This document shows positions 25,861 to 56,407 of a stretch of DNA of 64,000 bases, piece after piece (the first letter of the stretch is position 1; every line of letters starts with the position of its first letter). The translations under genes and the position numbers were made by a program. The DNA comes from Thelonectria olida (Eukaryota > Ascomycota > Sordariomycetes > Hypocreales > Nectriaceae). The stretch is taken from positions 496,001 through 560,000 of the forward strand of contig JAGPYM010000019.1 in assembly GCA_020736575.1 (NCBI GenBank), given 5' to 3'. The notes under the pieces were generated by a model, which was given only the letters and a program-made list of their open reading frames with translations, was not told where the DNA came from and made no database searches.

Positions 25861-26222
25861 CAGCCTTCGCTCACCTGGCGCTCACCCTGCTCTCGGAGCT
25901 CACTGAGCTGCAGCGCTGAACCCCACTGAGTGGCCTGAGTCCTCAAGGTTGGACGCATGGATGTTACAGGTCTTGGTGGTGGGGCGGGGGCGGGGCGGAG
26001 GTGCAGGGTGGGAAGCGATGGCCAGGGTATGCTGGATGAATGCCTAGGGTGAGCGAGATGTGATCCTCAACCTCTGTGTCTATAAAGACGTTCTTGTCTT
26101 CCCAGAACCTCCCGTCAAGCCATTATCTACTTCCGTTCTAACATACTACCGACACAAATCTTCCTTATTTCTTCTCTTGCCTCTTTCTTCTCTTTTACAA
26201 GTCACGTCGAAACAGTGTCGAC
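25861..26222 (+). promoter_or_regulatory. 5' region of the recombinase gene, with TATA box
   Basis: A GC-rich patch (GGGGCGGGGGCGGGGCGG near 25981-25998) is followed by TATAAA at 26081-26086, 137 bp upstream of the ATG, and a strongly pyrimidine-rich leader (26120-26210). If the gene is a captain, the left end of the element should lie in or just left of this stretch; no terminal repeat could be recognised. Confidence 0.45.
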
Positions 26223-29200
26223 ATGACGATCAGTGCAACCTCCACAAATGAGGCAGAGGCGAGACCGCGAGGGAGAAAAGCACGAGACCCAAGCAAGTTG
26301 GTCGAGATAGCTCTCCAGAGCGGTCTTACCCAAGACAGATCACAGATTGACCCGCACCCAGTTCGTAGGCTTCTAAAACCGAGAAGCCAAAAGCAATATC
26401 GCCGTGAGCTTGAAATCTGGAAAGCGTACGTAACAAACCCTCAAAACCCATCGCTGCTAAACTAATGTACAATTAGGTATGAGAAGGAATTTCCCGGATC
26501 AAATCCCCAAGACATCCAAACACTCAAGCATTATGCAGAGTTTCTTGGGCGCATTATGAAGGGGAGAAAAGATCCAAATAAAGACAAGGCAACGGACAAG
26601 AGTGTCCGAGTAGCAATCCGGCGATTTTGCAACGCGTGGGAACGAGAGAATCATAAGTATATTTCCCTTGATGTTGAAAGATCAATGGCTCCAGTCAGTG
26701 CTCCTCTACATAGTCATTGGTGTTCTTCTAACAAATTTCAGTATATTCAGGGAGAACTAGCGGCAAAGATCGGCCTATTGGTAGGAAAAGAGGCACGCAA
26801 GCCAAAGACGTTCCTGACTATTGAGAACTTTGTCCTTATGCACGAGTTCCATTGGAGTAACGACTTCCACGATTATGTGCACGACGGCACCCGAGTAGAT
26901 AACACTAATTTGTTGAATACTCATTGTTTCACCTCTGGGAGATTGCAGGAGATATGCCAAGCGAGATACAAGGTAATGGCTCTCCGCACACAAAGATTGA
27001 CTCATCAAATCTCTGATGCTTCGATAGGATCTTCAATGTATTCTTTCATGGACTGAAGGGAAGCCAGACTTCAAGCTCAAGTTCACAAGAGAAATCTGCA
27101 AGGCAATTGATGAAAACCAGTAAGGCAATTGACTTTTCTTAGACTAGCGAAGAGACTAATGAGATGGTAGACCAGAACATCCTTTTGCAGAGCAGATGAG
27201 GGGTCCCGACGGCCTTCCACCACCCCTTTTTGCCCAACCCATGTTGCATTGGCTAGCCAACATCATCTCTGCTAAGGCATTTTCGGGCTCAAGCACGGTG
27301 GATCAAGTCCTCAGTATCAGACCACCCAGGGATGGGAACTTTCGGATCCTTGAATGGGCGGACAATGTCAGAGACCAGCCCGTATTTCCAGAATGGTCTC
27401 GGGATGGGCCAGGAAATAAAGTTAGGAATCCAACTTCATGGGGGAAACAAGCCTCAGACTGGGCGATACGGTCAGGCTTCACTGCAGGGTTTGGCTTACA
27501 TGCTGTACGCCGTGAAGCGCTGATCAAAGCCAATGGTGAGAACGGCAACTCTTTCTAGCCCAATATTTACTAACGTACTCTAGACAATGGCTATTCATTG
27601 GGGCAAGTATTGAGATTTGCCTCCCAGAATAACACCAACGTCTTGGTTAATCACTACCTGGGAAGTATTTCTACTATTGACGGAGCGGGAAGCTTTCTGG
27701 GAATGGAGCTCCGGTCCGACCTAGCAGAAGATTTCCGATCCGCAACAATGAGAAGAAACCCCGATCTCCAATTTTCTCTTCCTGCGCGGGTTCTTGAGGA
27801 TCTTCAAACCAGTCATGCTTATGCTTCCCTCACCGAAAAGATCCGTTCCATCAACCTGGAATTCAACGACTCCCTCTCCGAAGAGCGGCTCGCGAACCTA
27901 AAAGCTCAGCGAAAGACTGCCTATGAAGAGCGGAGAACGCTTGAGCGCGAGAAGCTTCAAGAGTTCCAGCAAAGCCAAAGGCTTGTTTATGAAAACCATT
28001 TGGGGGAGCATGAACAAGGTAATTGGCGCCGGACTTACTTCAACCGAGTTCGCCACGTGCTGCCTAAAGAGCGGTTGCGACTTGGCCAGACTTTGTCGCT
28101 CAGACTCTGGCCACGGAGCCCGGAATGGATTTCCGCGCTCGAAGATCTGATCGCTCTTCGCACCAAAGATCACCGTGTTGCATACCAAGATGCCTTGCAA
28201 CCTATTAACGGGCGCTGCCCGGTTCCAGATTGTGGCAAGGAGATCGAAAGGCAAGAACGCACCATTCTCTTATCCAAGCACATCAACTAACATAGTTCCT
28301 TAGTGACCCAGTTCAAACCCGTTGGAAGCATATATATCGCTGCTATGAAGCCTTTCACAAGAAATCGTCTGGCTTTGCTCGGTTTTGTTTCATTTGCAGC
28401 AAGTGGTGGACCAGCAAGTCCGACTGGCTGAATGACTGCCAGTCTCATATCGACAGCTGCAACGTTCCTTTCCGCTGTGATCCGATCACCTTCCGACACG
28501 CGATAGCATGTGCAGGATATTGCCCGGCCCATCTTGGACGAACTGATCTTCCCGCGGATGAACGCATGCAACAGTGGACCGATCAGACCGCCTGGAAACG
28601 ACACATCTCCGACTGCATCCCAAACTACATTAAGGGCCAGGAGGACATGAACTCTCTATCGTGTCCCCACTTCCGATGTCCTGTCGTCTGCTCCTCTGCT
28701 CAAGATTTGTGGCATCACCTGGACGATGTTCACAGTACCCCCAAAGAACCTGCTCGAAAGCGGAAGGCCAGGGCAGACGACGATCAAAACCTCGAGGAAC
28801 CCATGCGAAAGATCCGGAAATTCATTAATGTCTCAGGAAAGGTCGCGATGCCGCTTCAGGAAAGTCGATGTGCCAGTCCCGCGGTTGATTCGGCAAGCCT
28901 ATTTGATTCGATACCCTCAGGCAGTCCAACTCTATGCTGTTGCAGCGAAGGCGATGACTCACAGCATACTGGAAATTCTCTCCGCGATTGTGCTTTCACC
29001 GGATCGCCTCCTGGTTGTATCCACTCCAGTGTGGCTATCAAGACCCCGGTTTCGTACCTAGAAAGTCCAAGACCCTTACCTCTTCCCTCGCCAGAGGCTT
29101 CCTGCTCAGCGAAGTCACCAATTCGCTCACCCGAATCAGCCAGCTCAGTAGTGCCGATCGACCCGATGCTTTTATCCGCACACACTAGCCCGGAAATCAT

Positions 29201-29633
29201 CTCTGCATATCCGTCAACATTAGAGCTAGGATTGGAAGTTGTTCCAACGGAGATGCCAGCCGAATCCCCAATTTTAACAGGCAAATTCTTGTCGACGAAC
29301 GAAGGCGAATACTTGATCGACTGTTTACTCGGGAGATGGGGAAAAGACCTGTTCTTTTTGAGGTGGCAGGATGGAAGCTACGGTTGGGAACCTCGGCATA
29401 ACATTCTTGACGACGACCTGATCGAAAAGTTTGAAACGGAATACCAAGGGTTCCAACATGGAGTTGAGGTGCTGCGCACAAGGATCCGGAATAGAAAGGC
29501 GGAATATCGGTTGCACTGGATTGGTCGTCCTACATCTGAGGATTGGTGGGTGCTTGAAAGAGATATGAGTCCCGAAATGATTGAGAAGCACAAACCCCAA
29601 AAGAAGGGCAGAAGAGGGCGCAAGAGGGCTTAG
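26223..29633 (+). CDS. DUF3435-type tyrosine recombinase (Starship captain-like) with zinc fingers and two chromodomains
   Basis: Seven exons: 26223-26425, 26477-26693, 26742-26972, 27028-27119, 27171-27535, 27584-28250, 28304-29633; 1034 residues, frame intact throughout. The last intron is GC-AG (AG|GCAAGA, branch CTAAC). Residues about 50-420 match the DUF3435 recombinase pattern: SQKQYRRELEIWKAYEKEF, first catalytic Arg likely R207 (FTSGRLQEI), H358-x-x-R361 (GLHAVRREALIK), FASQNN at 381-386 and the nucleophile Tyr394 (VNHYLGSI). A charged coiled segment (about 470-510) follows, then C2H2/CCHC-like fingers (about 583-735; CFICSKW, CPHFRCPVVC..H..H), a low-complexity linker, and two chromodomain-like modules: 927-975 (EYLIDCLLGRW, LRWQDGSYGWEPRHNI; cage-type Y928, W946, W953) and 977-1025 (YRLHWIGRPTSEDWWVLE). 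A nuclear element-mobilising enzyme is expected. The chromodomain fusion is unusual for captains. Confidence 0.85.
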
Positions 29634-29869
29634 AGAACCCAGAAAAATATGCAATTGGCCATTTATTAGGCATGTTACCTCAGATGTTTCTCAAATTACG
29701 TTCCTTTTCACCTAAACTCTAGGTGATTGACTGCCTTGCCTTCTGTAGTCGAAATCGCCTCTTTACCCTCCATATTAATGACCAGTAACCGCTGGGCACC
29801 GAGTCTCTGCGACTGTTAACCCAGTGGCCTTCGAGAAGCAAACAAGTGCCATGGTTTTGTCACGATAAC

Positions 29870-30060
29870 TTAGTTCAAACCATGCATTCTTGAACAGGAT
29901 GCCAGATCCGAGCTCCTTCACTAGCTGGGATCATTTCCACCCACAGGTTAATTGTGTGGTGAGAATCTTGCGGCGTCGATCCCGTCCTTCTTTTTGGTCT
30001 CATCATGTTCGTGCTTGGGACCTGGAATTCTTACTAGCACTGCTTTAGTGGCTTTCAGGC
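29870..30060 (-). pseudogene. relic copy of the Ulp1-type gene (central segment)
   Basis: The minus strand reads RRRKILTTQLTCGWK-stop-SQLVKELGSGILFKNAWFEL, a close match to the segment RRRKRLTTHLARGRKWSRL and SGILLKNAWYARL of the Ulp1-type gene at 37.3-39.8 kb. Just before it, IPGPKHEHDETKK corresponds to ILGPKPKDDENDRK there. The stop replaces a Trp codon (TGG to TGA). No protease core is left. It lies tail-to-tail with the recombinase gene, 240 bp after its stop. Confidence 0.7.
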
Positions 30061-30654
30061 TTACCGGTGAAAGCTTCAATCAGCCTACAGTTTGCGTGGG
30101 CCACCACTTCCTGTGGGGTTCATTGTCCGTAAGGTCAAGAGCTTCAACGAACTATGGTCAGCCATTGAGGCAAGACGGGCTTGAGAGCCACACGACCAGA
30201 GAAGATGAATATGCGACGCTCGAGGAAGCGAAGCAGCCTCCGCCTCCGGTATTATCTCCTTTACGGGAAGCCCGGCTTTGCATAAATTGCCGATAAAAGA
30301 GGTTAAATAATGCATGGGGCCAATAATACTGCCATGGGGGTAATTCGCCACGGCCCAATCCTTAGCTCCGAGGCACTGGTCGTACTGTGGTCCAGTTTCC
30401 CGCCTCTCTGCGAATTGTCAGGGGCGAATCGTCTGGGCGAATGTCAGAGGCGGCTGCCACCATTCTTATTCCACTATGTAGATTCCGCCGCCTTGCAAAC
30501 AACGTGCAATTATACTGTAGAGGTAGTTATGCGAAAGCAAAAACTATAATTTACCCGCGACTCCTACGACCTTCCTCCTACAGAGGTAAAAGAGAATGAA
30601 AGAGATGTATGCTTACAGCTGTTCTTATAGGCGATTTCTGAGACTGTTGGACGG
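30061..30654. other. intergenic, further decay products
   Basis: No supportable gene. Minus-strand sequence up to about 30300 may be the more strongly decayed N-terminal side of the Ulp1-type relic. Confidence 0.35.
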
Positions 30655-33600
30655 TCACGAAACCGAGAAGCCGATCGCGAGAACCCTCCCTGATGGACAG
30701 CCGAGGGCAATCGTGGCGGTCGAGGGCGATATGGCCGAGGCGGAGGGCCGGTAGCCGGGAGGAAGCCAGAGCGCGTTATGCCCGTTCCACTTGATCCAGA
30801 ATTCATCGGGGCTTAGACCGCAGCGTTGAGCTTGGAGATCAGGCTGAGGCTGAGCCGCAGTACTAGATCCAGTCTTGTCTCCGGCCTGGACTTCAGCTTG
30901 GGCTTGTCTGCTGTAGGCTTCCACGAGATCACTTAGTTGCATTAGGCCATGGCCCTCGAGCGTGTGCTGCAGCGCCCCCGTCGCCGCATCCCAGATCTTG
31001 ACCGTCTTGTCCTGCGACGCTGACGCGAGCTGCCTGCCGTCGCTAGAGAACGCGACCGAGTTGACCGAGCCGCCATGGCCCTCGAGCGTGTGCTGCAGCG
31101 CCCCCGTCCCCGCATCCCAGATCTTGACCGTCTCGTCCTCCGACGCTGACGCGAGCTGCCTGCCGTCGCTAGAGAACGCGACCGAGTTGACCCAGTCGCC
31201 ATGGCCCTCGAGCGTGTGCTGCAGCGCCCCCGTCGCCGCATCCCAGATCTTGACCGTCTCGTCCTGCGACGCTGACGCGAGCTGCCTGCCGTCGCTAGAG
31301 AACGCGACCGAGTTGACCCAGCCGCCATGGCCCTCGAGCGTGCGCTGCAGCGCCCCCGTCGCCGCATCCCAGATCTTGACCGTCTCGTCCTCCGACGCCG
31401 ACGCGAGCTGCCTGCTGTCGCTAGAGAACGCGACCGAGTTGACCCAGTCGCCATGGCCCTCGAGCGTGTGCTGCAGCGCCCCCGTCCCCGCATCCCAGAT
31501 CTTGACCGTCTCGTCCTGCGACGCCGACGCGAGCTGCCTGCCGTCGCTAGAGAACGCGACCGAGTTGACCCAGCCGCTATGGCCCTCGAGCGTGTGCTGC
31601 AGCGCCCCCGTCGCCGCATCCCAGATCTTGACCGTCTCGTCCCGCGACGCCGACGCGAGCTGCCTGCTGTCGCTAGAGAACGCGACCGAGTTGACCGAGC
31701 CGCCATGGCCCTCGAGCGTGTGCTGCAGCGCCCCCGTCGCCGCATCCCAGATCTTGACCGTCTCGTCCTGCGACGCCGACGCGAGCTGCCTGCCGTCGCT
31801 AGAGAACGCGACCGAGTTGACCCAGTCGCCATGGCCCTCGAGCGTGTGCTGCAGCGCCCCCGTCGCCGCATCCCAGATCTTGACCGTCTCGTCCCGCGAC
31901 GCCGACGCGAGCTGCCTGCCGTCGCTAGAGAACGCGACCGAGTTGACCGAGCCGCCATGGCCCTCGAGCGTGTGCTGCAGCGCCCCCGTCGCCGCATCCC
32001 AGATCTTGACCGTCTTGTCCTGCGACGCTGACGCGAGCTGCCTGCCGTCGCTAGAGAACGCGACCGAGTTGACCGAGCCGCCATGGCCCTCGAGCGTGCG
32101 CTGCAGCGCCCCCGTCGCCGCATCCCAGATCTTGACCGTCTCGTCCCCCGACGCCGACGCGAGCTGCCTGCCGTCGCTAGAGAACGCGACCGAGTTGACC
32201 GAGTCGCCATGGCCCTCGAGCGTGCGCTGCAGCGCCCCCGTCGCCGCATCCCAGATCTTGACCGTCTTGTCCCCCGACGCCGACGCGAGCTGCCTGCCGT
32301 CGCTAGAGAACGCGACCGAGTTGACCCAGTCGCCATGGCCCTCGAGCGTTTGTAAGCAAGGGTTCCAATTACGTTCCATGATCGGTTTTGTCGTTATCCA
32401 ATTAATTTGTTCCTGAAATGTCTCTCGAATAACGCTTCTCTCTGGGGCAAAGACAAGTGCCGAGGAGTAGAGCTGGAGGGGCGCCTGGTCAATTGTTGAG
32501 CGGCAGTTGAGGATAAAACGTTTCGCATCATGAAGAAACCGCGAGACTTCAGCACCATTATCGAGCTAAACAATTTGTTTTAGAAAATGCCGGCGCATGG
32601 CTTTGGGACTGACTTACATCAACCAGGCTCTGCAACTCGTCTATAAGCCCGATGCTCTCCGATATCCTCCCGATGAGACTCAACGCTTCAAGCCAGTGGA
32701 GGAAGTGGCGCTGAAGGAATTGGAGCGCTTGGTGCTCGTCGTGAAGGAATCGGAGCGCTTGGCCGTCGGGAAGCCTGACTGTGCTGCCCTTCAAGTGATA
32801 CACCCAGTACAGGCACGCATATTGAACCTCTGATGGTAGGCAGCTATCGATCTTTTGTCTGTCGACGTCCTCTCGAAGTCTCCCAAGCATCTGTAGGCCA
32901 CAGATATCTTTTTTGAGATGACCGTTCCCCAGCAGTTCAATGCATTTAGTCGTCAGCTTCCCGTGAGTTTCCCTTTCATCAACCCAAAATGGGTTTGTCT
33001 CGCGCTCGTCAGGGTCGACGAGGAAGTTTCGGAACGATAGGTGGAGGGGCTTAACAGGAGCATTTGAATCAGAAGGGATATCCAGGACCGAATGCAGCAG
33101 GTCTAGCCTATTGTCGATATCTGCCTTATCGATTCCAAGCAGGCACGATAGACATGCCGTGGAGAGGGGACTGGCGAGAACGACAAGTGAGCCGACGACA
33201 TCCCTGAATTCCCTTAATACGTTGTCTTTAGCCGGCCCGGAAAGGTCAACGAGCAACTGGTCCAAGACAGGGGAATACGTCGCGTTAAGTTTGGACATCT
33301 CTCTGCTCTGATACTCAAGAATCTTCGTGAGCTGTTTGTTCGGGGGGGCAAGCCTGCGGTCGCTAATAAACCGGCAAGCGGTTGCAGCAAAAATAAACAA
33401 TGGAACGGCCATCTTGGCGAGTTCCTGGATGTTCGTTTGACCTGGCCAATCTGACGACAATCGCCGGTCCCTGGGAACTAGTCTATTGTAATCATCTCTG
33501 ATATTTGAAAGCTCACCCTCTAGGAATGTGAATATGTCATTGTGGATGACACGTTCATCAACCTGATGAAGAGCCAGATCTTGGTAGGTGCCGCTGATTC

Positions 33601-35467
33601 TGTCGAACTCGAGGCGAATTGGGAATTCCGGTCGGCTTGTAACGAAGAACTTTAGGCGAATTGATGTCAATTGCGTCAGTTGTGGCAAGAGGCCAATGAT
33701 GGTTTGAGCATCCTCTTCGCGGTCACACTCGTCAAGGGCATCAACCACAACCACCATCGTCTCGGGAGCCGTCGGGTCCACTTCAACCTCCAGAGGCTGT
33801 AGAACAAGTTTCTTGAACTGTTCCTCCATAGACTTTTCGGCAATAGAGGGGTTGGTCTCAATCGCCTTTCGAACGTACTGGGCCAAGCGAGGGTGCTTTT
33901 GGGCCAGCTGGGCGGCGATAGTAGTGAAGAACCGCGCTGCTTTGCCGCGATCTCCTTCGCCCCTCTTGAACAAGAAGCTGGCGCCCAGCGCTCCGCTATT
34001 GCCGAACTTCTTGGCCACGGTGCGAGATATTGTAGACTTCCCGGTGCCTGCCATCCCCTGCAGCCAGTATATGCATTTACCATCCGGATCGTCGGCCCAG
34101 ATGTAAATGTCGGTGAGGAGGTCGGCTCGAGTCTCGGGATAGCATCCGGCGTCATGTTCGTTGGCATGGGAGTCAAATGCAGCGTCTTCGACAGGGCGCA
34201 GCTTAGCAAGGAAGATATCTTGGTGGATGTCGACGACTAGTATGCTGTAGACAATATCATCAGTGCTGCTCTAATTGAAGATATGTTCGCGACTTACGCC
34301 TGGTCCTGAATGGCTCGATGGGACTCTTTCGCTATGTTGAGGAGTTCTTCGACTTTGCCCCGATTCAGACGATTGCAATGTTTTTCGCAATCGTCGGCGG
34401 CTCGGGCAAGCTGGTCTTCCCTCTCCGTGAGCTTTTTGACATACTCTTCCATGTCGGTGAGCCTGAAAGGCGCGCTGATCCCGTTGCTCTTGCTTCGCTG
34501 GCGTTGGATTGCAAAGCCGAGAAACAACAGTGACTGAACGTAAGCTTGAACGATAGATTCCTCGAGGGGGCGCAAGACGTCCTTAGGTAGCCGGAGGGTG
34601 GGATCAAGAATCGTGTACAATCGCCAGTACGTGTCGCATTGCAAGACCAGCAAAGTGACCTTGGCAAGACCAAAGATGATTTGGCTCGTCAGCTCGCTAT
34701 AGGCGGTCAGAGACTACATGGGTCAGCTCAACTCGAGAAAGCGAACTTGGCGTCTGCCCAAGTATGACACGCCGTAGAGACCAGAGCCACTCACCACAAG
34801 AACAGACCGAACAGCAGCCCATGGTAGAGCAGCATGGGCCGGATCAAAGCTGACCGCAACGTCGCCAACCGCAACGAACTTGTTCAGTATCGCGACAGTT
34901 TTGTCGACAAATCCACGGACAGAGTATTCATACTGGCCGATTTTGATCTTCCAAGCTCGTTCTTCCCTGTCATGTTGATGATTGTTGATTTCCTGCTTCA
35001 TATTTCCCATGATTTCCTTGGCCAAACCGTGTGCTTGATTCTTCTCAAACTCTTGAATGATAGCAACGATCTTAGGGTCTTCTTTCGACTCTTCTAGACA
35101 TTTTAGGGCCTTGTCCCATAGCTCGAACTCACTCGGCTTTGCAAGCTGCGCATTTCCTTCGTCGTTGGCGGCTGTCCGTGCAAGGTGGCCACCACTTGAT
35201 GAGGTATTAACGGTATGCTTCGCGTCGGTCTGGTTGGCGGTAGTTGGCAAAGTATCGGGGACCTGAAGAACCGAAGACTGGATATAGTGATGTTAGCCAG
35301 GTGGATGAGAGGCGGGAGACGGGACGGCGGCAGTCGTAACAGGAGAGCGACCGAAATATGGGACTAACTTGTCTGTCCGTCTCGTGTGGCTCAGCGTCGG
35401 CGCCAAAACACCCACACAGCCGGGTCCAACATTTCCTTTTCCTCCGGGTGGGCCTATTCGAGCTCAT
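30655..35467 (-). CDS. NLR: NACHT-NTPase with 11 WD40 repeats
   Basis: Exons 35467-35369, 35277-34795, 34713-34298, 34244-32618, 32565-30655; introns 91, 81, 53 and 52 bp, all GT-AG; 1511 residues, uninterrupted. The N-terminus is basic with a Cys cluster (KCWTRLCGCFG, possible palmitoylation). Then comes an NWD-type N-terminal domain with the hallmark DPAHAALPWAAVRSVL (exon 2/3), the motif LRPVEDAAFDSHANEH before the NTPase, Walker A GMAGTGKST (396-404), Walker B VVVVDALDECD (497-507) and a VTSRPEFPIR sensor. The NACHT-winged-helix region runs to about 875, eleven WD40 repeats fill about 947-1408, and the conserved tail is CGLSPDEFWIKWNGHNALWLPP. Proteins of this plan act in fungal non-self recognition and programmed cell death (HET-E/D type repeats). 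It is also one of the gene families typical of Starship cargo. ATG at 35467 follows the first clear open start; an upstream in-frame extension exists. Confidence 0.92.
30967..32352 (-). repeat. array of 11 tandem 126-bp WD40 repeat units
   Basis: Eleven contiguous units of exactly 42 codons, nearly identical in DNA. Variation is concentrated at a few codons: G/S-D/G/S-S/W before VNSVAF, DG or DS before RQLAS, and S-G/Q/R/E-D-K/E before TVKIWD. These are the surface positions that are hypervariable in allorecognition WD40 NLRs. The near-identity indicates recent unequal exchange. Confidence 0.9.
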
Positions 35468-36356
35468 CTCCCAGGAAAACAGCTTCTTGAGCCTCAAGAA
35501 CGATTTATAAAAGAAGACAGCCGATTGCCTTCTCGAAAGAGTAGAAAGGACTTGGATTCCGTCCTGGCGTAGCTGTCGATGACGTCGAACTAATCTTGGC
35601 AACGATGGGATGGAGCAACGTAGTTCCCAGCACTACGACCAAGGTGACAGCCCAACTTGTCCCCCCAATCGCGGGGTTCGGTGGAATTTCAGGGTCCGTG
35701 CCAAAGTTCAATAATCGAGAGTGAACTTGGAGAAACGCAACGATTATGAAAGAGGTCACGAGAATATGATGACCATTGCTGACGAAAAGCTGTTGGGCAG
35801 AATTGGGCAGAGGGAACGTCGGTCAGGAATGCGTGATCAAGCCACCCTCGACCGTGGGCGCGTACTCGCAGCTGAATGAGCACCTCTCACCCAATAAATA
35901 TCGTTCTCATGCGCCACGACACGGCATATCACACACGCTTCACCAATCATGCGTGGCTGCTGGCTCGTGGACAAAGGGACTTCGCCGCCCCCGCCCGTCC
36001 TGCCAAAATGATCCTGGTTGAACACCAGGTCGAGTGGTAGCGCCGTGAGGTGTTTTCCTGAACGAATCGTGTCCAATCCCCCCCAGGCGACAGCGTCCGG
36101 TCGCGTCAATTCAGGAACCCGCTTCTCGGCAGCCTGGAGATGGCCGACAATTCTCAAGGCGGAGGCGAAACTCGAAAGCAGAGTCGAGTGCTCCCCGTTC
36201 ATGCTCCCCGTCGCTGACGCGTTCAAGCTCACAATTCTGCTAATAGAGTCCTCCATTCTCCTCCCGGCCCCTCGAGCGCGAGAACGGCATGGCGCCGACG
36301 CGTCGCGACACGACCAAGACCAGCGCCTACCGCTCTCGCCCCCATTGTACCGCATA

Positions 36357-36839: not shown

Positions 36840-36913
36840 TTGCTAATTTCACCCAGTCAACAGAGGGTTGCCTGACGAACAGTTAACGTTTGCTTCTACT
36901 CGTCGTGATGAGT

Positions 36914-37231: not shown

Positions 37232-37262
37232 GTTAATTTCTCATATCCGCACGTCCAGCCGC

Positions 37263-45576: not shown

Positions 45577-45582
45577 TATAAA
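45577..45582 (+). promoter_or_regulatory. TATA box
   Basis: TATAAA 91 bp upstream of the start codon at 45673, at a usual distance for a fungal promoter with a short leader. Confidence 0.4.
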
Positions 45583-45672
45583 GAATGACTTCAGAATTGC
45601 AAGCTGGTGCAACAAACAACAGGATTGTCTCCATACCATATCTGACATTCATTTCAAGGTCACCCAAAAGCC

Positions 45673-46157
45673 ATGGTAAGCTCAAAGATGTCTAGCTCCC
45701 AATCAACAAGACCTAACACACCTAGCAACCACACCAGCCTCAGCAACAACAGTCGTACATACAACTGGCCCCTGTGCCAGAGAATACGATCGTGACTACA
45801 TGGCGGCCACCATTGGCTACCAGCATGCGTCAGCCACCTCAAACTTGGCATGGTCAATTAACCGCCGACCTCGCAAATTGTCAGAGAGAAAATGCGAATC
45901 TCAAGGCGATGCTCGATCAATCAAACACGAGGTGTGACTGGTGGAGACAGGAACACGAAGCCCTCTCCACTGCCTACTTCAAATTGGCTGAGCAGGTGAG
46001 GACTCTCAAAGCACAGAATTGGAAATTAAAGGAACGGGCCAGGAATTTTAGAAATGGTGAACAGAGCGGGAATGAGGCACACCGACCAAGTTCCGGTCGT
46101 GGGCTTGTAATCTCGACAGGGACTCAGGGAGAAATAGTTGATGACGCAGAACGCTGA
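45673..46157 (+). CDS. coiled-coil protein whose ATG forms a three-base first coding exon
   Basis: The first coding exon is just ATG (45673-45675), followed by a 50-bp intron (GTAAGC to CCTAG) and the main exon 45726-46157; 144 residues. The protein starts with a Gln-rich stretch (MQPHQPQQQQSYIQL) and then a coiled coil (LANCQRENANLKAMLDQSN; LKAQNWKLKERARNF). No family recognised. It is a third coiled-coil gene in this block. Confidence 0.6.
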
Positions 46158-46792
46158 ATGGGAGGCGTAAGTTGGTTTATGATGTGATGTAGCAGGGACA
46201 GATCCCCTTATCTTAGCAGATGATTGCGAAAATGCAAGGATAAAACCTGAAAATCCCCAGTAGTTGCGAATTTGCTCACTCAGGTGACTGATCATTGATG
46301 TTGGTTCTGGGTATCAAGCCAACAATCAAAAGTGGACAACATAAATGGAATCCGTTCATCCGAGTGGAACTAATCACTCACGTGACTGTTTGGGAGACCC
46401 ACTAATTAGACGTTGGTTCTAAGGCACCTGCCTCAGGCAGGGATGCTGTCAAGGATACAAGGTATAAGTTCATGACTCCCAAGCACCCCAATTGCCCAAT
46501 CCCACCCAATCATGGTGAAGCAACTGCCAATATCCGTGCACCCCCTCAATTTTCCGCTGAGGCAACAACGCTAGACAAAGGAGTGGAGTCCGTTTAGTCT
46601 TCTATTTATAGCCTGAGCTGAGCTGATGCCTTCGCCAACCTCCGATGCCAGAGGCAACAATCCAAGCCGGGTCATAAATAAAATGTTTTACCCTTCTCCT
46701 ACAGTCGCAGTCTGAGCCTTTTCTCAACCACCTATTTTGAAACTACCATTCCCGACTTTCGCTGCTTAACCACTTTCCCACTTCCCACAGCA
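46158..46792. other. intergenic, promoter side of the MADS-like gene
   Basis: No coding sequence. TATTTATAG at about 46603 and an AT-rich patch near 46675 could serve the gene at 46793. Confidence 0.35.
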
Positions 46793-47172
46793 ATGAAACT
46801 GGATCGTCGCCTAAAGGTCATGCGTAAGAGGCGTAAAAAGTCTCTGAGAAATAAGATCTGGGAGTTTGCGAGTCTCTTCAACATGGATATTGCTGTTATT
46901 CTCCGCGATAAGACCTCTTTGAAGAATGAGGTCATCAAATCCACCAGGGATGAAACCTGGCCACCGATGATGGAAAATGCTGTGAGATGAAAATCTTTTC
47001 CTCTTCCGTTAAATCAACTAATTATAAATAGGAAACTACCATTGTACAGGATGAGAATAGCGAGGAGAAGAGCAAGAAATTGCAGCTAATGAAGGATCTG
47101 GATACTGTCCACAGGCGGTTCAGACAGATGAAGATGCCTGTCTCACCGGCTCAGTGGAGGATGAGGAAATAA
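46793..47172 (+). CDS. small MADS-box-like protein
   Basis: Two exons, 46793-46981 and 47032-47172, 109 residues. Residues 5-35 read RRLKVMRKRRKKSLRNKIWE then FASLFNMDIAVILRD: a basic stretch followed by a helix and an I-A-V-I-type strand, the order of a degenerate MADS/SRF domain, with the WPPMMEN motif seen in short fungal MADS-like proteins. The second exon is charged and helical (DENSEEKSKKLQLMKDL). It could bind DNA as a short regulator; the assignment rests on pattern only. Confidence 0.5.
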
Positions 47173-47249
47173 ACGTGCGCTTCTGACCCTTTTTCTTTTT
47201 TTGTGCATCGGTATGTTCTGTGCCTCGTGTACCTGTTCCTACTCGTACT

Positions 47250-47552
47250 TCAAAGCACTTCTAGCAATGCCATTTCGAATTCTTCGAGGTCCTCCGGCGA
47301 CAGGTTGATGAGCTCTTGTAGTGGGGGAAATATGATCTTGCCGCTAGAGTCTAAATATCGGTTCGGAGGGCGATGCCGGTGTTGACTCGTAGCCCCATCG
47401 AGACGGACGGGACCGGGTGGTGGACGTTGGGCCAGGGAAGACGAGGCACCATGCTTAGAGTCTGTCGCTATGCAGCCGTTGTTGTTTCTGGAAGCAACCT
47501 GGCGACCCGCGGTGGTGATTGAGGGTTCCTCGGTAGGCGCGCCATGTGTCAT
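47250..47552 (-). CDS. small hypothetical protein
   Basis: 100 residues from MTHGAPTEEPSITTAGRQVA; polar, with RPPPGPVRLDGATSQHRHRP and an acidic helix at the end (LQELINLSPEDLEEFEMALL). The frame is open further upstream to 47690, but the start at 47552 gives the more natural N-terminus. It is convergent with the MADS-like gene, 78 bp apart. No family recognised. Confidence 0.5.
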   Translation of the reverse strand: MTHGAPTEEPSITTAGRQVASRNNNGCIATDSKHGASSSLAQRPPPGPVRLDGATSQHRHRPPNRYLDSSGKIIFPPLQELINLSPEDLEEFEMALLEVL

Positions 47553-47829
47553 TGTGGATACGTGACGAGAACCGAAATAATTGAATCCTCTGAATCGAGC
47601 TGAGCTGAGATGGAAAGTAGAATAGGGGAGAGGGGCAAGCAGAGGAGAAAGGAGCTCTCTTAAGGACCCAAGTGGAATGCACTGCCACACCTCTTACCAC
47701 CAAACGCACAATTTATCACGGACACTAGATTTCCCGATCTGTAGGGTGGTCTGCAGCCGGCCGCCTTGGCACTACTTTAATTCCATGCATTAAACATCTA
47801 CGAAACCCCTTTGACTAAGCTGGTAGTGT

Positions 47830-50800
47830 CTACCTACGTTCGCGACCTCGGACTTTTCGTAACTTTCTTCCTCGCTCTGGGAGGCTACGTATCTCACCCG
47901 TCGCTTTTCTCTTGTGCGTGCGAGTTCCGAAAACGGCTCTCAAGCACCCAGATGAAACAAGTTTGCTAATCTTGTAAGGCGAGCCGCTGAGAGGACAAGT
48001 CTGGCGACTTCCACTCTCCCTGAGCTCAATAAGCAGATCTTCACTGGTAGAAAAGGTAAAATTGTGACCAGGATCCGGGTGGCGATCACTACCCGTGTTT
48101 AATGGCACTGGCTTTCCGTTGATAAGAATTGTGCATTTACGAAATCGGTGAAGGATTTCCCGTAAGGCTTGATCGCCTTCCTTCCTAAGGCAGTAAATCT
48201 TCCCTCGGACGAAGAACTTGGCCCCAGTCTTTCGAGGAAGCGCGTCAAGTTCAAAGTAGAACAGGTTGGCAAACAGTCGACAAGCCATTTTATCAATCAC
48301 CTTGGAGAGACTCTTATCTCGGTGTACTAAGGTCTTTAACGTTGGCATCGTCTTGAAGTCGTCAAGACTCGGGGGTCGATGCAAAGTAATGTCGAGCCTA
48401 TATTGAGTGCCACCTCCAAGGATCTCCTTTGCAAGACCGGCACAGTCGTTCCACGTCTTCTGTCCTTGGATAAGGGACATATAGGCCCGATAGAGGCGGG
48501 CCAACCAGCTATCTTCAACCACTCTCGGTTGACTATTCTCAAGCGGCAGCCCTGGAGAAGAACCCGTCCCAACATTTAAAATGAGGTCTAACTTTGCTCT
48601 TGGCTCAAGTGCTACAAATTCGGACAGTGCTATAAGAGTAGGGTTATTTTGCAACACGCCCGCGTCTTGGAATGTCCCAAGCCCAGGGATATATTTTGGG
48701 GCAAAGAACCTAGGAGTTTGTTAGTTTTATCACATAACCTTCGCGTGTAGATACCTACAAGGGGGCGGCGGAACTGCTACGAGCACTAGAGAGAAGTCAG
48801 TGATGCGTTGACTAGAGGGATGTTTACAACATACACTTCCCATATTTTAACGGCTTCACAATCTTTCGGAATATAATAACCGGTTCTATCCTTACCTATT
48901 CCGTTATAATTGGTAAAAAGGCAAGTAGACGGCTGGAGAATGCTTGCAGCGGGTATTCCCACTTTTGCCCCGATTGTGTTCGCGTAGCACATATCAGTGA
49001 TTTTCTTACTGCCGAAGACTCTCCGTAATGCACCTTCAATCCCTCGTTCCGAGTAAAAGCTGCCTGAGAGAATCGAATAGATCCAATTGAGGATGGGGAG
49101 GCCAGCGATGGGGCGTGGATGAAATGCCACCTTGGCTAATTCTTCAAACTCAACGGCACACCGCTCAACAGGCCATCCATTCACAAACAACGCCAGAATA
49201 ATTAAGGCCCCTAGAATAACACTTCAACATCACAAATCCGCAACATAAGAACAGAATAAACTTACCAGCACTGACGCCGTACGCATGAGTGAAGTGTTCT
49301 TGGATTGGTATAGGGAGGCCCAATCGTTCCTCAATAAGCTTTAGGACAGTTGGGGGCACAATTCCACGAACGCCACCACCGTCTATACATAGAATACTAT
49401 ACCCTGCGGTTGGTGGACGAATACGCACTGTCAGTCCAGAAGTTGTTCCGCACAGCACACACGATTTAAGTGTGAATAGCCACTCGTCTTTATCATCCGA
49501 GGAGCCAAACAGCTGCAAGCAATCTTCGCAAATGAAGTGGCCGCAAGGATTCTTATGCTGGGGGGGCTGGATAAGACAAGAAAGGCAAGTCGTAGTACTC
49601 TTTATGAGTCTCCAATGCGATTGAAACCTCATCAATGTAGTCGTATGGACTGTAATTGACGATTCTCCCCTTACTAGACGATCGAAAAGAGACTCAAAAT
49701 GTACAAGGATTGTGGATACGATCGAGCTTGGGAGCAGTATGCCGTCAGTACGGTCTTGCTGAGCAGTGGCTCTGCTGGCTTCCACACATATACCCTTGTA
49801 CAACCGATGAAAAACATCAGAGGGTTTAAACACTGCATGATATTAGTGGTTTTACACACAGGACTCATTGGAGGGTAACATACAGTGCATTCCGGGTGGA
49901 TAGTTATCGATAAGAATGCTAGATGCGATCACCGGAGCTACAAAATCGCGAAGCTCTTTGGCTAGCTTCACTTGGTTCATGAAGTTGGAAAGATGTGTCG
50001 TCATATCGGCTGCGACGGGCCTATCTTGTCTTGCACCACAGATAAAGTCGAAGTCATGCTTGGGATTTATGGCCATTGAATCCCATGCTCTCTCGAATAG
50101 TTCATTAAAATGCTCAATCGAAAAAAGATTAGCTGTCTCACGACGATGCTGACGAATGGCTCCTGCATGTTCGGCCAAAACTGAACGGAAGGTAGTGTGT
50201 GAGACATTGTTGGGCATTTGGATTACATCAAGCCTCGAGAAGTGGGTTTCTAGAGTCTGAGAAGCAAATGAAGATATATACTTCTTGAACAATTCGAAAG
50301 CCACAACGGTAGCATTCGTTTGTCGCCAATGGGTATCACTGAGGACCAGCAAAAGAGAGGGACGTAAAGTCGATTCAACGTGGGAACGGCGTTCCATCCA
50401 ATAAGCAACCCGGCGAGCGATCGTCCCCAAATCTTCCATATTATACGAAAAAAAGCAGAAGACGTCCACAAAGCGGTAGAGCAACTGGGCATATATCGCA
50501 ATTTCAGCATCTAAAGATGATGTGATGGATGGAATCGATTCTTCCTTCTCTGGGACGCAGCACTGAACCCTTGTTTTGGACTTCATACTAAGGGCAGTGG
50601 TTCCAATGAGAAGAGGCTGGCTGCTGTCTGTAATATCCAAGTCTAAGCATAACTGTCCTGGATGTCGTCTGGGTTTGGGGGAGCAACTGGGCCTTTGCCG
50701 ACAACCCGTCACTATGATCAAACTTGGATTTGGAGACTGCGGCGCCAGCGACGCAGTCACTTCTCGCAAGCGCCGAGAAGTTGCAATTGCGGGATGGCGC

Positions 50801-50841
50801 TCCCCACAATTCCACACCCAGTGTGAGCAGGAGGAAGGCAT
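47830..50841 (-). CDS. patatin-like phospholipase with a RING-like zinc region
   Basis: Five exons: 50841-49884, 49832-49266, 49210-48835, 48785-48759, 48709-47830; 935 residues, all GT-AG, frame intact. The N-terminal ~320 residues have no known motif (FFSYNMEDLGTIARRVAYW). A RING-like cluster lies at 402-447 (CLSC, CGHFICEDC, CVLC). The patatin core follows: oxyanion-hole DGGGVRGI (470-477), nucleophile elbow GVSAG with Ser507 (usual form GTSTG) and catalytic Asp658 in FQDAGVLQNNP (usual DGG). Such enzymes cleave acyl chains from lipids. Patatin-like phospholipases are one of the recurrent accessory families of Starship elements and also serve as effector domains in fungal NLRs. The changed elbow may alter activity, but the Ser-Asp pair is kept. 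Confidence 0.87.
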
Positions 50842-51181
50842 GGCGTTTAGATAGAGGAATAGATAAGAAATGCTATATAAATCCAATCAGGGGAAGCCAA
50901 GTTCTTTATACCTCAGTTCTGACAGAGAGGGTCTGGTTTAGGTACCCTTATCTATTTATTGAGGAGGGGGGGGGGCTGTTTTCAGGCCCTCCCTCTTCCC
51001 GCACAAGGGGAAAGATGAGGTGGGAAAGACTTTGCACTTGCCATATATCGTAGAGTGAACAAGTCTACCGTACTGTGTATACGTACTTAAAGGATCACGT
51101 TGAAAATTTTTAAAACGTGGGATCGACAAATCGCCTCATCAAGATTGCATTTACCACGAGTTACGATATTTTTCGGATCCG
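50842..51181. promoter_or_regulatory. divergent promoter region
   Basis: 340 bp shared by the patatin gene (left) and the 290-aa gene (right). It contains a long G run near 50964-50975; no TATA box was seen. Confidence 0.35.
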
Positions 51182-52054
51182 ATGTCTATCTTCTGTTCTT
51201 CCTTCTATGCGAGGATGTCCGCTCAACTTAATACCGCCATAAAAACCCAAAACTACAATGAGCTCGCACATGATTATGTTTTTATTAATCACGGTAGTCG
51301 CGACGTCAGCCCCGTTGATATTGAGTCTGCCGACGAATTCGGCGACAAGATTGTGAACCATGCAACTTTCGCTAAGCGTGGTAATTCGCCTATGAATACC
51401 ACTCACTGCGGTGGCATTAAGCAAGGCCTTGGTCATGACTCCGACGATCCGAGTGAAAAGGATGGTGCATCCCGTAAGAGGCAGTGGAAAGCGGCATCCT
51501 GTCTCATCTGTCCTGGTCACGATGGGACCGCTTCTAATGTTGCGGCTGTCTTCATCACGGCTGAGTGCATGGACAAACTCTGTGCCAATCTAGACGCCTT
51601 GAGGGCTGGTTTGCACCCATGCAATCAGTATGCCTCTCAAAGCGACAATGTTAAACAAAAGGGCTTTCGTCCAGCTCCTAAGGCGAAGCACGAAGAGGTG
51701 AACGTAAGAGTATCGCGAGTGGTGTGGAAAGCAACAGATGCGTCCGAAGAATTGGAATATAGTTGGGAGTGCAGTGAGGGTCAAGGTGATGGGGGTTGGT
51801 CTAGGAATGGAGATGGGGAGTTCACGATTGTTTCAGGGGAGTTTCTCCTCAGCCACTGTCATGATCTTACTATTGAGGTCTGGCCGGATGGCGAGTGTCT
51901 CCCAATAATGGTCTCCTGGAATGGCCAGACAAAGTTATTCGAAGGTCAAGATGCTATAGAGGATTGGAAAATGGAGATTAAACCGGAGGTTATTATTGAT
52001 ATGCTCTGTCGGCCCGAGAACTCTCAATGGGGGCAAGGAGAGTGGATGTTCTAA
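51182..52054 (+). CDS. 290-aa protein of unknown function
   Basis: Single exon, coding-like throughout. There is a Cys/His group in the middle (SCLICPGHDGTAS) and Trp-rich acidic sequence at the end (LEYSWECSEGQGDGGWSRNG; WNGQTKLFEGQDAIEDW; PENSQWGQGEWMF). No signal peptide or membrane helix. The ATG at 51215 (MSAQLNTAIK) is an alternative start. Not assigned to a family. It lies between the patatin gene and the kinase-like gene. Confidence 0.6.
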   Translation: MSIFCSSFYARMSAQLNTAIKTQNYNELAHDYVFINHGSRDVSPVDIESADEFGDKIVNHATFAKRGNSPMNTTHCGGIKQGLGHDSDDPSEKDGASRKRQWKAASCLICPGHDGTASNVAAVFITAECMDKLCANLDALRAGLHPCNQYASQSDNVKQKGFRPAPKAKHEEVNVRVSRVVWKATDASEELEYSWECSEGQGDGGWSRNGDGEFTIVSGEFLLSHCHDLTIEVWPDGECLPIMVSWNGQTKLFEGQDAIEDWKMEIKPEVIIDMLCRPENSQWGQGEWMF

Positions 52055-52325
52055 CTAGCTAATTTGTGGTGCATCACATAACCCAAGATGAAATTGCTAC
52101 CCTAGAGCCAGATAGGAATAGTAACCAGATCACAAAGATGAGATGCAGCAATGGTTAGGCCTCTCGACCAAAGCTTAAGAGAACTTACGCTAAATTGTAA
52201 CGTTAATATGAAAAAAATAAAGCAATGTGGGAGCAACTCTATTTGCAGGGCGATACCTCTCCTTTCGCGGACCTAAATAGCTAAGTGGGATGGCCCATGA
52301 GCTGGATAAGTTGACTCATGCAGTC

Positions 52326-53323
52326 TTATTCTCGACTATGATGCGCTGTTATCAATACAAATAGTACTAGCCACTCCAATTCTTTCTGATTTCTCTTTCC
52401 TAAAAATGGGTGTCTTGATAAATCCTCCATAGTAGGTTGAGATATCATTTTTGTAAACAATTCGAAAGCCTCACTAGACCACCGGTTAGGATGGGTGAGC
52501 CCAACACTGGAAGATGAGCTCTTCTCTTTATCCATAAGCATCATTATCATTTTGCTGAAGGAGTCAAAGAACTTGGAGCTACTTCCATTCCGTTTGCAAT
52601 GTTCAATGTCACTGATTTTCACGGAGCCGGCGAAATTGACTAACACACAAGCACAAGAGATGTCCTCATGAACTAGATCAAACCGCAAAAGGTACTCGGA
52701 AGCAGACAGAATCTAAAACATATGAGATTAAATGCAACGACATGATAGGGATAACTTACTTGGTATACTATTGAGCTGAGCTGAGATTCCGACGGATACA
52801 TGGGCGAACGGCAAACATGTAAGAGAGACGTCGCCATCATCTCTGAAATAAGTGAATAGCTTTCATCGGTACTCGCGTAAAGCTCGACATTCCGAACGAT
52901 ATTTGGGTGAAACATCTGGCGTATATTTTGGATTTTCCCATCTGCGTTCGAGCCTGAGATAGTCCGAATCATGTATGGCTCTTTGTCACGGCTCTCTCGA
53001 GTAACGACTGCAAATGAACACCAGAACTTCAAACGGTATCTCTTCTCATAGTGCTTCCATGGAGATCCAGATACAACCGGAACTAGGACTTCTCCACTTG
53101 TGCGCTTCACTGGAAAACGGTTTCGTGGGGAATTTCTTGAGGCCACCCCGGGACTCATGTCGTCCTCCCCCCGAGCGGTCTCTTGTACGCTTTTCGCAGT
53201 GCTCAGCTCCCCTGTGCGGTTCAGTTGCTGAACTTGGTGGACTGCAACAGGACCGGAGACCATCTGGTGAAGAGCTGAAGAGTCATCATCGATGAACAGA
53301 GTATGACGATCGAGTTTTGACAT
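52326..53323 (-). CDS. degenerate protein-kinase-like protein
   Basis: Two exons, 53323-52760 and 52712-52326 (47-bp intron), 316 residues. The kinase fold is recognisable from FHPNIVRNVELYASTDESYS (helix C to strand 4), SEMMATSLLHVC (hinge), LLRFDLVHEDISCACVLVNF (catalytic loop) and GSVKISDIEHC. The HRD motif is HED (203-205), the loop Asn is replaced, and DFG is DIE (223-225); no glycine loop is visible. The end WSSEAFELFTKMISQPTMED and HPFLGKRNQKELEWLVL fits the C-lobe. The usual catalytic set is incomplete, so it is probably a pseudokinase. It is divergent from the DUF3723 gene, 299 bp apart. Confidence 0.65.
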
Positions 53324-53622
53324 TTTCGTTTGGCTTCTCCCGCCCTCTCTTTGCCCCTGATGATTCAAGTAACCAACTAAATATTATGACCCATGAGTGC
53401 TGACCTCTGATACGAAAGTGGCTCCCCTCGGAGCTTGGGCTCACGGAAATGGCCCCCCCGATAAGGAATCCGACCCTAAACCGCCCCCCCCCCCAACCTA
53501 CCCCGAGGGGGTTTCTGGCCAATGTTGCTGGTTTGATAAGCCAAATAAGCGAGTAAGACCTTTTTCTCACATGTCCATATGAGGCGAATGGAATAGCGTT
53601 CTTCGATGCCCCCGAAACAAAA
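53324..53622. promoter_or_regulatory. divergent promoter between kinase-like and DUF3723 genes
   Basis: 299 bp, including a C11 run at 53484-53494. The two start codons face away from each other, which suggests co-regulation. Confidence 0.4.
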
Positions 53623-56143
53623 ATGTCAACGTTCAGCTCACATTCGCAGGGACAACGTCTCAATGGAGGGAACCAACTCAATTACCAGGGGACGGCGAAA
53701 GTGTCGATTAATGCCCTTGTGTTTGCTCCTGATGACACGCCTTGCGACGTAAATGTCGATTTTGACAAAGTTGAGCGATTGAAACGGATTTTTAAACTGG
53801 AAGGATGCGATAGACTAAACCCAAGAAACTACATTCCGGGAGAAATTTCCCGAGAGGTCCTTCAGGCGGCAATGATAAAATCGAATGTCACAGAAGCAGA
53901 CCTCAATGCCGACGAACCTCGAATTCTATATCTTCCTCCATGTGCTTCGATACGATGTCCTCATGGTCGAAGTCGTGTCAAGGCACTGGAGGATTCTAAC
54001 GACTATGGTCGCCTTGCCCGCTGGTGGACAATAGAGCTGTACACTGGTAAGGATCACGACAAGTTTGTAATGTGATGGATCTTGACAATGAGCAGATATG
54101 GTACCGGAAGCATTTGATATACTGAGCGAGGAGTTTTTAAACGAAAAGAGCTTCTCCGATGGCCACATTTTAGTCAAGATATGTCTGTCTCGCCGAAAGA
54201 ACCTAACGGCTGAAAACCGTTGGTTGGCAAGACTAAGTAAGAGCAAAGCTGAGATTTTAAAGAGGGTGCTCAAACACCCCTTAATAGCACCGGTTCTGAC
54301 TAAAATCATGTTGGAAATACCTGGCATGCGTAATGGGTTAGAGATTGGCGTCTGGCATAAAATCATTGGGGCTAAAAACCCAGAGGTATTTTCTCAGGAA
54401 TGCTATCATACACATCAAACTAATTTTTTTTTTGGAAAGGAAGTAGTACACTACATGGAGTACATATATTCAACGTTGGTTTCTATTATGGGATCAAAAG
54501 AAGCTCTCCAGTTTGTCGATACTACCGCTATCCAGACATTTGAGCTTCGGTGTCCCGGATTGTCGCAACTTGATTGCCGGCACATTAAGCAAGCGATAAT
54601 CAACGGAGAAGTGTTCAAGACATTAACTGACGATGTAAAGAGAAAACAGATATTGGAACGTGCTCAGCAAGTTAAGTACTTGATACCATCTATTCACACC
54701 CTACAGAAGGATTTTAAGTATCTACGACCATGCACCGATGTACTCAGGCAGTTAGTCTTGGGGAAGAGTCAAATACCATTCAGCACCCAAACAATCGCCT
54801 TCGATGCGCTGCGCCGAGGAAACAACAGTTCTATAGATTCTGAAACCATCTTTTTCTCACAGATGAAGCTTCTCTATCTACACATCATGCAAAATATCGT
54901 AGAGCTCTCCGGTGAGAACCCGCTCATGGAGGATGATGAAGTTGCTCCCGCCAAACGGATTTACGATCAACGAGCTTGGTCTCGCTTGGCAAGCAAAGCC
55001 TCGCGGCTTGGATTTCGCTCGGATGAAATCTCACGACTCGTGTCTTTGGATCCCGATAGGTTAGTAGCCTTACGGGCACTCAACGATGCTCGGCCACCGT
55101 CAGAGTACGAGTATGGCAACACTAAATTAGAGGAATTCATTTCTTCAATAACCCAAATATTTCAACAAGCACAACGAAGAGAGTCTGTGGGTCCTAGGCT
55201 TCCCGTATTCACGACTTCTGGAGTGGGCGAGCCACTTCCTAGACGTTGTGGTCGTCATTACTCGAGGGCGTACTCTGAAGATCGGTCGTTTCTAACAGAA
55301 GATGTCTTCCGTCGCCAAATAGAAAAAGGAAATGATATTACGTCCTTATTTGTTCGAAAGTCAGTATTCAATGCGTTCTGGGGGGTTGATGACTGGGAGC
55401 CGGTGGACAATTCAGGATCAGGAAGTGGACAGGTGTCTCCCAGCGAGTCTGAAAACAGCATGCAGTTCTCAGACGACTACTTTGCGGGGATGGTGAGTGA
55501 TCAAGATCAGGATATGGAACAGCCAGAAGTCCAACAACTACAACAGCAAGAAGAAGGGCAGCAGCAGCAGCAGCTTGAAAAACTACGGCAACAACTCCAA
55601 CAACAACAGCAAGAGATTCAAAACCAACAACAGGCGATTTGGAACAGGCAACAAGATCTCCAGAGACAAGAAGAGGACCTTGAAAAACAGAAACGGCGTC
55701 AAGAATTCCAAAAAAAAAACCAAGAGCGCCACAAGAGCATACTGACAAAACGAAAAGGGGCAAAAGTAAATCAGCAGCGAGCACTGCCGACGAGTTCACG
55801 GCAACACCAATCTGCGTCTGAGGATAACGCAGTCGTTCAATTTCATGATCTTATCGATCCAAACTCGCAGCTTATATCATCGCCTGATGGACTGAGTCAA
55901 GGAGGAGAGACAAGCATCCATATCTCTAATAGTTGTGGCGATCGAGTTGAGCGATGCCGACGTCATCGACAATCGATTGAAGATATCCTTGCAGCTGCGC
56001 GAAACGAACACATGGGGGACTCAGTATTGATGTTGTACAATATTGAGAGACGCGGCATTGGTTTGGACGATTGTACAGCATTTTCGGATATCTTCCTGTG
56101 CCCTGAAGGCACTGATGAGAGTTTCTTCGAGGATGAATTATAA
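53623..56143 (+). CDS. DUF3723 family protein
   Basis: Two exons, 53623-54046 and 54096-56143 (49-bp intron), 823 residues. Family marks: RLKRIFKLEGCDRLNPRNYI, the CPHGRSRVKALE motif (usual form C-x-H-G-x-H-R), DYGRLARWWTIELYTD, then SDGHILVKICLSRR, ENRWLARLSKSK, PGMRNGLEIGVWHKI, and LIPSIHTLQKDFKYLRPCTD. A Gln-rich coiled coil occupies about 617-705. The molecular role of DUF3723 is not known, but the gene is one of the accessory families that recur inside Starship elements. The reading frame is intact. N-terminus chosen at the first ATG (MSTFSSHSQGQ). Confidence 0.9.
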
Positions 56144-56407
56144 AGAACCAGTATAAAGAAGTGAGACAAGATGATTTTGCACGAGACTGAGAACAAGCTA
56201 TCAGAAAGGCAGGAAGTTATAAATAATACATATAATAGTGAGTTACCATCAATCAATAAATCAAGTTGCGTCACAAAACCTTGAGAAATTCATAATCTAA
56301 GCACTGGCTGCCAGAGTCCAGTCGGTCCCATGCTGAAGATAAGAACGGGCATACAATCCTTCCGAATATTCCTCCTACTGTCCCGATACAGTACTAGCCT
56401 AACATGG

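What the first reader, a model, noticed from the sequence alone, without database searches (positions are those of the whole stretch)
26000..56150. Candidate Starship-type giant mobile element starting with a captain-like recombinase
Seen: an intact DUF3435-type tyrosine recombinase at 26.2 kb pointing right, then within 30 kb an NLR, a patatin-like phospholipase and a DUF3723 gene. Known: Starship elements begin with a DUF3435 captain at one end pointing inward, and NLR, patatin and DUF3723 genes are three of their four recurrent accessory families (ferric reductase is the fourth and is not seen here). Inference: the stretch from about 26 kb to at least 56 kb is one element or a nest of elements with new cargo (sirtuin, Ulp1-type protease, small coiled-coil genes). 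No termini or target duplication could be found by eye, and the right end may lie outside.
Basis: partly seen in the sequence, partly recalled or inferred. Interest (0 to 1): 0.9.

Follow-up and report, generated by a model that had tools for sequence, protein, structure and literature searches.

The report
A complete 102-kb fungal Starship element
This window holds the first 38 kb of a 102,000-base fungal jumping element that landed inside a sugar-transporter gene, and at least one short relative with the same ends but no recombinase gene of its own lies elsewhere in the same genome.

Summary
Confirmed and extended. The window lies on a 724-kb contig of Thelonectria olida (named through an identical protein). 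The element starts at 25,802, inside a sugar (predicted maltose) permease gene; the other half of that gene lies 102 kb to the right on the same contig and strand, outside the window. A 6-bp direct repeat, TGTTAT, flanks both ends, inverted blocks lie inside both ends, and leaving the stretch out gives an open permease frame. The element is 101,965 bp, 38,199 of them in the window. The captain (1034 aa) starts 421 bp from the left end, points inward, has the R-H-R-Y residues, and ends in two chromodomain-like segments. NLR, patatin, DUF3723 and ferric reductase genes are all present; the last lies outside the window. No second captain was found inside. Left ends recur at 12 other places in the genome, right ends at 17. 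One 5.5-kb relative has both ends, no captain and an open HET gene, so it may move in trans. Sirtuins lie near DUF3435 genes more often than expected (5 of 17 loci). It is a new member of a known kind; the short relatives and the fused chromodomains are the new part.

The parts
25494..25801 (-). 3' part of the interrupted sugar (predicted maltose) permease gene; its 5' part lies at window coordinate 127,768-129,167, outside the window
   Evidence: The two parts match paralog C103 positions 5209-5512 and 3817-5213. Joined, they give one open frame of 310 aa across the junction. PF00083 E 2.2e-71.
25796..25801 (.). left copy of the 6-bp direct repeat TGTTAT; right copy at window coordinate 127,767-127,772
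25802..64000 (+). part of the element that lies in the window; it continues to window coordinate 127,766 (101,965 bp in all)
25808..25818 (+). inverted block 1, CGAATCTCGAC; inverted partner at window coordinate 127,741-127,751
25827..25837 (+). inverted block 2, TTGCCGCTTTA; inverted partner at window coordinate 127,693-127,703
26223..29633 (+). captain tyrosine recombinase, 1034 aa; exons 26223-26425, 26477-26693, 26742-26972, 27028-27119, 27171-27535, 27584-28250, 28304-29633 (one GC donor); middle part rich in Cys/His (zinc-finger-like by eye), two chromodomain-like segments at the C-terminus
30655..35289 (-). NLR: NACHT_N-like start (weak, below cut-off), NPHP3_N, 11 near-identical 42-aa WD40 repeats; a GTAAGT...TAG intron, read by eye, joins the two large frames
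36012..36839 (+). DUF6601 protein
   Evidence: PF20246 E 3.4e-27
37678..39897 (-). region of a C48 (Ulp1-type) protease frame and two further frames, with a 9-bp tandem array coding for NEA repeats; that they form one gene is a guess
   Evidence: PF02902 23.8 bits against cut-off 20.7 for the first frame, no family for the other two; array 38724-38817
40304..41305 (+). sirtuin
   Evidence: PF02146 E 1.2e-14; 90% identical match on C131
47830..49842 (-). patatin-like phospholipase
   Evidence: PF01734 50.1 bits after splicing by eye
52326..53383 (-). protein-kinase-like frames
   Evidence: PF00069 and PF07714, below cut-off
53557..56143 (+). DUF3723 protein
   Evidence: PF12520 E 1.5e-74 and 5e-12
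56408..57283 (-). DUF7492 protein
   Evidence: PF24320 E 9.8e-98
58508..59806 (-). BCS1-like AAA ATPase
   Evidence: PF08740, PF00004, PF25426

Best explanation
This is a Starship of 101,965 bp, complete from end to end, in Thelonectria olida. Shown by sequence: a DUF3435 recombinase with an open reading frame and R-H-R-Y residues sits just inside the left end and points inward; a 6-bp direct repeat TGTTAT flanks the element; inverted blocks lie inside both ends; the element splits a sugar permease gene. Published for other captains: they are needed and sufficient for cut-and-paste movement. Inferred here: this captain recognises the inverted blocks, exchanges strands at the TGTT-type core and joins the element into a target with a similar core; the chromodomain-like segments influence where it lands; and the same captain could move short relatives that share its ends but lack a captain.
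For: Split gene and junctions. Matches to the left-end sequence start at the left end in 12 of 20 rows. Matches to the right-end sequence stop at the right end in 17 of 31 rows and, apart from the window's own copy, none runs past it. The core starts with TGTT in 7 of 11 left junctions and 9 of 17 right junctions that were anchored, this element's own included, with unrelated flanks; TGTT makes up 0.4% of window positions. Captain. Accessory families. An uninterrupted homolog of the split permease, P0023 of Fusarium nematophilum, is 77% identical over 100%.
Against: Only one genome was held, so presence or absence among strains was not tested. The captain scores 0.4 bits under the PF11917 cut-off. 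The model of a relative (P0002) is poor (mean pLDDT 57.2, below 50 over most of residues 314-426), and the 50 fold-search rows shown are all chromodomains, at E 0.095 or worse, none a recombinase. Chromo is under its Pfam cut-off in the window protein (19.8 against 25.1 bits) and passes it in only 2 of 5 relatives tested. No movement was observed.
Confidence: 0.95

Rival explanations
1. The permease was split by an ordinary rearrangement or a misassembly, and the recombinase is a lone DUF3435 gene with no element.
For: DUF3435 genes are more usually found alone than as captains (PMC12134995, passages).
Against: The two halves are in order, on one strand, overlap by 5 bp in the paralog and carry a direct repeat and inverted blocks. 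The same two ends recur elsewhere with unrelated flanks.
Confidence: 0.02
2. The ends belong to a small transposon family; the 102 kb is a composite carried between two small copies, and the DUF3435 gene is only a passenger.
For: Short elements with both ends exist, and the one that was read has no captain.
Against: Captain and left end are joined in C77 and C83, and the start of a captain-like sequence with stops is joined to the left end in C124. No frame of 90 aa or more in the 5.5-kb relative looks like a transposase by eye; only its largest frame was run against Pfam.
Confidence: 0.04
3. The short elements are only decayed leftovers of full ships and never moved as short units.
For: C124 carries captain pieces with stops. 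Clean repeats were seen for C77 and C2; those of C46 and C124 are imperfect. The ends of C46 are only about 80% identical to those of C77.
Against: C46 keeps both ends and an open HET frame of 549 codons; with an upstream frame that may be its first exon the gene takes about 2.2 of the 5.5 kb. GC is 0.49 and TA/AT 0.84, so no strong mutation signature.
Confidence: 0.5

Closest known systems
Starship elements, for example those of Aspergillus fumigatus (PMC12153272, passages and one section)
   Same: Captain at the 5' end, short direct repeats (2-12 bp there), inverted repeats, size in the published range; NLR, patatin, ferric reductase and DUF3723 genes as listed for Starships in PMC12506042 (passages).
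   Different: The core TGTT[AT][TC] matches, by eye, none of the predicted sites in that paper's Table 1.
Sanctuary and Frontier (PMC12506042, PMC11857905, passages) and Janus (PMC12153272, table)
   Same: Starships that carry a chromodomain.
   Different: In Sanctuary and Frontier the chromodomain is a separate gene at the end away from the captain; for Janus only a table entry was seen. Here two chromodomain-like segments are fused to the captain.
Swordfish of Zymoseptoria tritici (PMC11231334, abstract and passages)
   Same: A sirtuin gene close to a DUF3435 gene.
   Different: No direct repeats were detected at Swordfish; here the ends are clear and the captain frame is open. Whether the two sirtuins are orthologs was not tested.

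Membership tests
Starship | DUF3435 tyrosine recombinase as first gene, pointing inward | tested here: met
   ATG 421 bp from the left end. PF11917 E 8.3e-6, 0.4 bits under the cut-off; 5 of 5 relatives tested above it.
Starship | Catalytic R-H-R-Y (recalled as the tyrosine recombinase signature) | tested here: met
   Present in the captain and in every row that covers the four positions: 10 of 14, the other 4 having gaps there.
Starship | Tyrosine-recombinase fold | tested here: inconclusive
   Model of relative P0002 weak over the catalytic domain; no recombinase among the rows shown.
Starship | Short direct repeats at both ends | tested here: met
   TGTTAT, 6 bp.
Starship | Terminal inverted repeats (common, not required) | tested here: met
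   Two separate 11-bp blocks.
Starship | Empty insertion site | tested here: met
   By comparison with an uninterrupted paralog (C103) in the same genome and a homolog in F. nematophilum; no empty allele of this very locus was available.
Starship | Large cargo with recurrent accessory families | tested here: met
   Three NLRs, patatin, DUF3723, ferric reductase (FAD_binding_8 above cut-off; Ferric_reduct 25.7 against 28).
Starship | Presence/absence among strains or observed movement | not testable with these tools
   One genome held.
Named captain families (Phoenix, Hephaestus and so on) | Similarity to the reference captains | not testable with these tools
   No reference captain sequences were at hand; two papers asked for by id are not held.

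The most novel reading that the evidence does not exclude
A chromodomain-bearing captain serves a two-tier system: the 102-kb ship, and short elements of about 5-12 kb without a working captain that have the same ends, carry single genes such as a HET incompatibility gene, and are moved in trans. A published survey discarded elements under 15 kb (PMC12153272, passage), so such elements would have been missed there.
Probability: 0.35. Interest if true: 0.8.

Novelty: new member of a known kind. Interest (0 to 1): 0.58.

Why it matters
It bounds a Starship from a single genome by way of a split gene, with a target core read from 28 junctions. If the short elements move in trans, Starship ends could spread incompatibility genes without a captain, which is easy to test. 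A captain fused to chromodomains would make chromatin-guided landing testable. The sirtuin association would link a distant published case to a wider pattern.

Tried and rejected
The PF11917 search of the genome gave no hit on this contig, because the gene is cut into exons. Structure prediction of the relative P0002 did not give a usable catalytic domain. No held paper names both Starship and Thelonectria. Searches with words for captain-less, non-autonomous, miniature or degraded elements showed no captain-less Starship in their listings; of the papers listed, passages were read for some only. Horizontal transfer was considered because a Fusarium oxysporum protein is 91% identical over 63% of the captain while a Gibberella zeae one is 52% over 98%; it is not claimed, since neither DNA nor a genome-wide background was available. 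A nested ship of this family was rejected. The C83 sister captain is not whole: matches to it skip about 280 bp near the start. No right end of this family was listed on C83. Sirtuin enrichment is weaker without the case that suggested it: 4 of 16, P 0.0014; without C82 as well, 3 of 15, P 0.011. Loci may be related copies and were merged by hand, so these P values are rough. The DUF3435 list there holds all places plus C77 and C83:343551; the weaker places were left out.

Full report
What was checked. The window is contig C77:496,001-560,000 of a 52.5-Mb genome. A protein identical over 74% of the joined permease lies on a contig of the same length as C77 (724,033) and is named Thelonectria olida (P0024).

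Ends of the element. A search of the genome with the DNA around the left side gave 20 rows. In 12 of them, some of them short or weak, the match begins within window positions 25,794-25,805. The other 8 are the window itself, six inner pieces, and a permease paralog on C103 that matches outside the element up to the direct repeat. Compared with 238 kb of C77, the paralog region matches in two parts: positions 5209-5512 at window 25,801-25,498, and positions 3817-5213 at window coordinate 129,167-127,768. The junctions carry TGTTAT on both sides. Joining the flanks gives one open frame of 310 aa across the junction. The right end was then searched on its own (31 rows): 17 rows other than the window's own stop within 9 bases of the right repeat, 13 are inner pieces, and apart from the window's own copy none passes the end. 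These searches score only their best candidates, so the counts are lower bounds. The element is 101,965 bp, 38,199 of them in the window.

Inverted repeats and target. CGAATCTCGAC and TTGCCGCTTTA lie within 36 bp of the left end and, inverted, within 74 bp of the right end. Thirteen left and seventeen right junctions were printed, this element's own among them. Two left ones were not anchored by the script. The 6-base core begins with TGTT in 7 of 11 left and 9 of 17 right junctions. By eye one of the two left-out junctions (C46:654713) reads TGTTTC as well.

Captain. PF11917: E 8.3e-6, 25.4 bits against a cut-off of 25.8. Twenty-two related proteins were found among the 7990 candidates scored, most of them from genera that I recall as Hypocreales. 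R, H, R and Y are present in the 10 of 14 aligned rows that cover the four positions; the other 4 have gaps there. Two C-terminal segments align in 12 of 14 rows (its captain row is the 1050-aa model). Pfam's Chromo passes its cut-off in 2 of 5 relatives tested (P0002 30.5 bits, P0014 60.9 bits with two stretches), is just under it in one (P0010, 23.1) and is not listed in two (P0003, P0006); in the window protein it is under the cut-off at 19.8. The model of P0002 has mean pLDDT 57.2; the 50 of 222 fold matches shown are all chromodomains, the best at E 0.095. In the papers found, chromodomains in Starships are a separate gene (Sanctuary, Frontier: passages) or a table entry (Janus).

Cargo. 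Fifty-six open-frame segments of the element were scanned against Pfam, captain exons included; this is not a full gene list. Besides the families in the window there are, by window coordinate: DUF7924 (66.8-68.2 kb), a cyclin (72.9 kb), a ferric reductase (78.5-79.7 kb; FAD_binding_8 above cut-off, Ferric_reduct 25.7 against 28), an O-methyltransferase (81.7-82.6 kb), a DnaJ protein (88.6 kb), an NLR with ankyrin repeats (108.8-111.6 kb), an APH-type kinase (115.9 kb), DUF6540 (119.0 kb) and a third NLR (121.6-124.5 kb). The element as a whole shows no sign of repeat-induced point mutation (TA/AT 0.72), though 3 of its roughly one hundred 1-kb windows pass the weak test used; AT-rich blocks of the right flank pass it strongly. 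No second captain was found inside.

Short relatives. Left and right ends pair in order and strand on C124 (about 11.6 kb), C46 (5.5 kb) and C2 (5.3 kb). C46 was read in full: about 250 bp of left end and 210 bp of right end, both about 80% identical to C77, no captain match, and a HET frame (PF06985 E 1.8e-29). C2 shows a repeat CTGTTT; C46 and C124 do not show a clean one. The insides of C2 and C124 were not read; C124 has captain pieces with stops. The remaining ends were not paired.

Sirtuins. Of 17 SIR2 loci (20 rows merged by hand), 5 lie within 50 kb of a DUF3435 locus; these surroundings cover 3.2% of the genome (P 1.5e-4). DUF3723, a known accessory family, gives 4 of 9. Without C77: 4 of 16, P 0.0014. 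On C98 and C82 the sirtuin is about 4 kb from the DUF3435 gene. Matches to the C48 protease frame and the sirtuin also lie together on C131, which has a DUF3435 and a DUF3723 gene. Swordfish of Zymoseptoria tritici has a sirtuin next to its DUF3435 gene (passages).

What the insertion hit. To the left of the element lie a sugar transporter (16.4-18.1 kb), a Zn2Cys6 regulator (19.9-21.0 kb) and an alpha-amylase family enzyme (22.3-24.6 kb). With the split permease they look like a maltose-use cluster; that is inference.

Limits. One genome, no strains, no expression, no observed movement. Features that define Starships are taken from the papers named (passages) or recalled; two papers asked for by id are not held.

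Noticed in passing
window 30946-32349: Eleven 42-aa WD40 repeats, about 96% alike at DNA level, differ mainly at a few positions (6, 7, 17, 25, 27, 35 and 41 of the unit), a pattern recalled for NLRs of self/non-self recognition.
   Followed up: partly
window 18865-19900: AT-rich block (about 21% GC) outside the element, with a repeat-induced mutation signature.
   Followed up: partly
L013, L053, L045 (C46:686498-692004): 5.5-kb relative with both Starship ends, no captain match and an open HET frame.
   Followed up: yes
C83:343551-347005: Second copy of the same captain and left end, mostly 90-97% identical, with about 280 bp missing; no right end of this family was listed on C83.
   Followed up: partly
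C98:281832-287210 and C82:544987-550682: Sirtuin gene within about 4 kb of a different DUF3435 gene on two contigs.
   Followed up: partly
window 26223-29633: A Fusarium oxysporum f. sp. pisi protein is 91% identical over 63% of the captain, a possible sign of horizontal transfer.
   Followed up: no
C77:672628-672692: Another right-end-like sequence on the same contig, opposite strand, without a left end found nearby.
   Followed up: no
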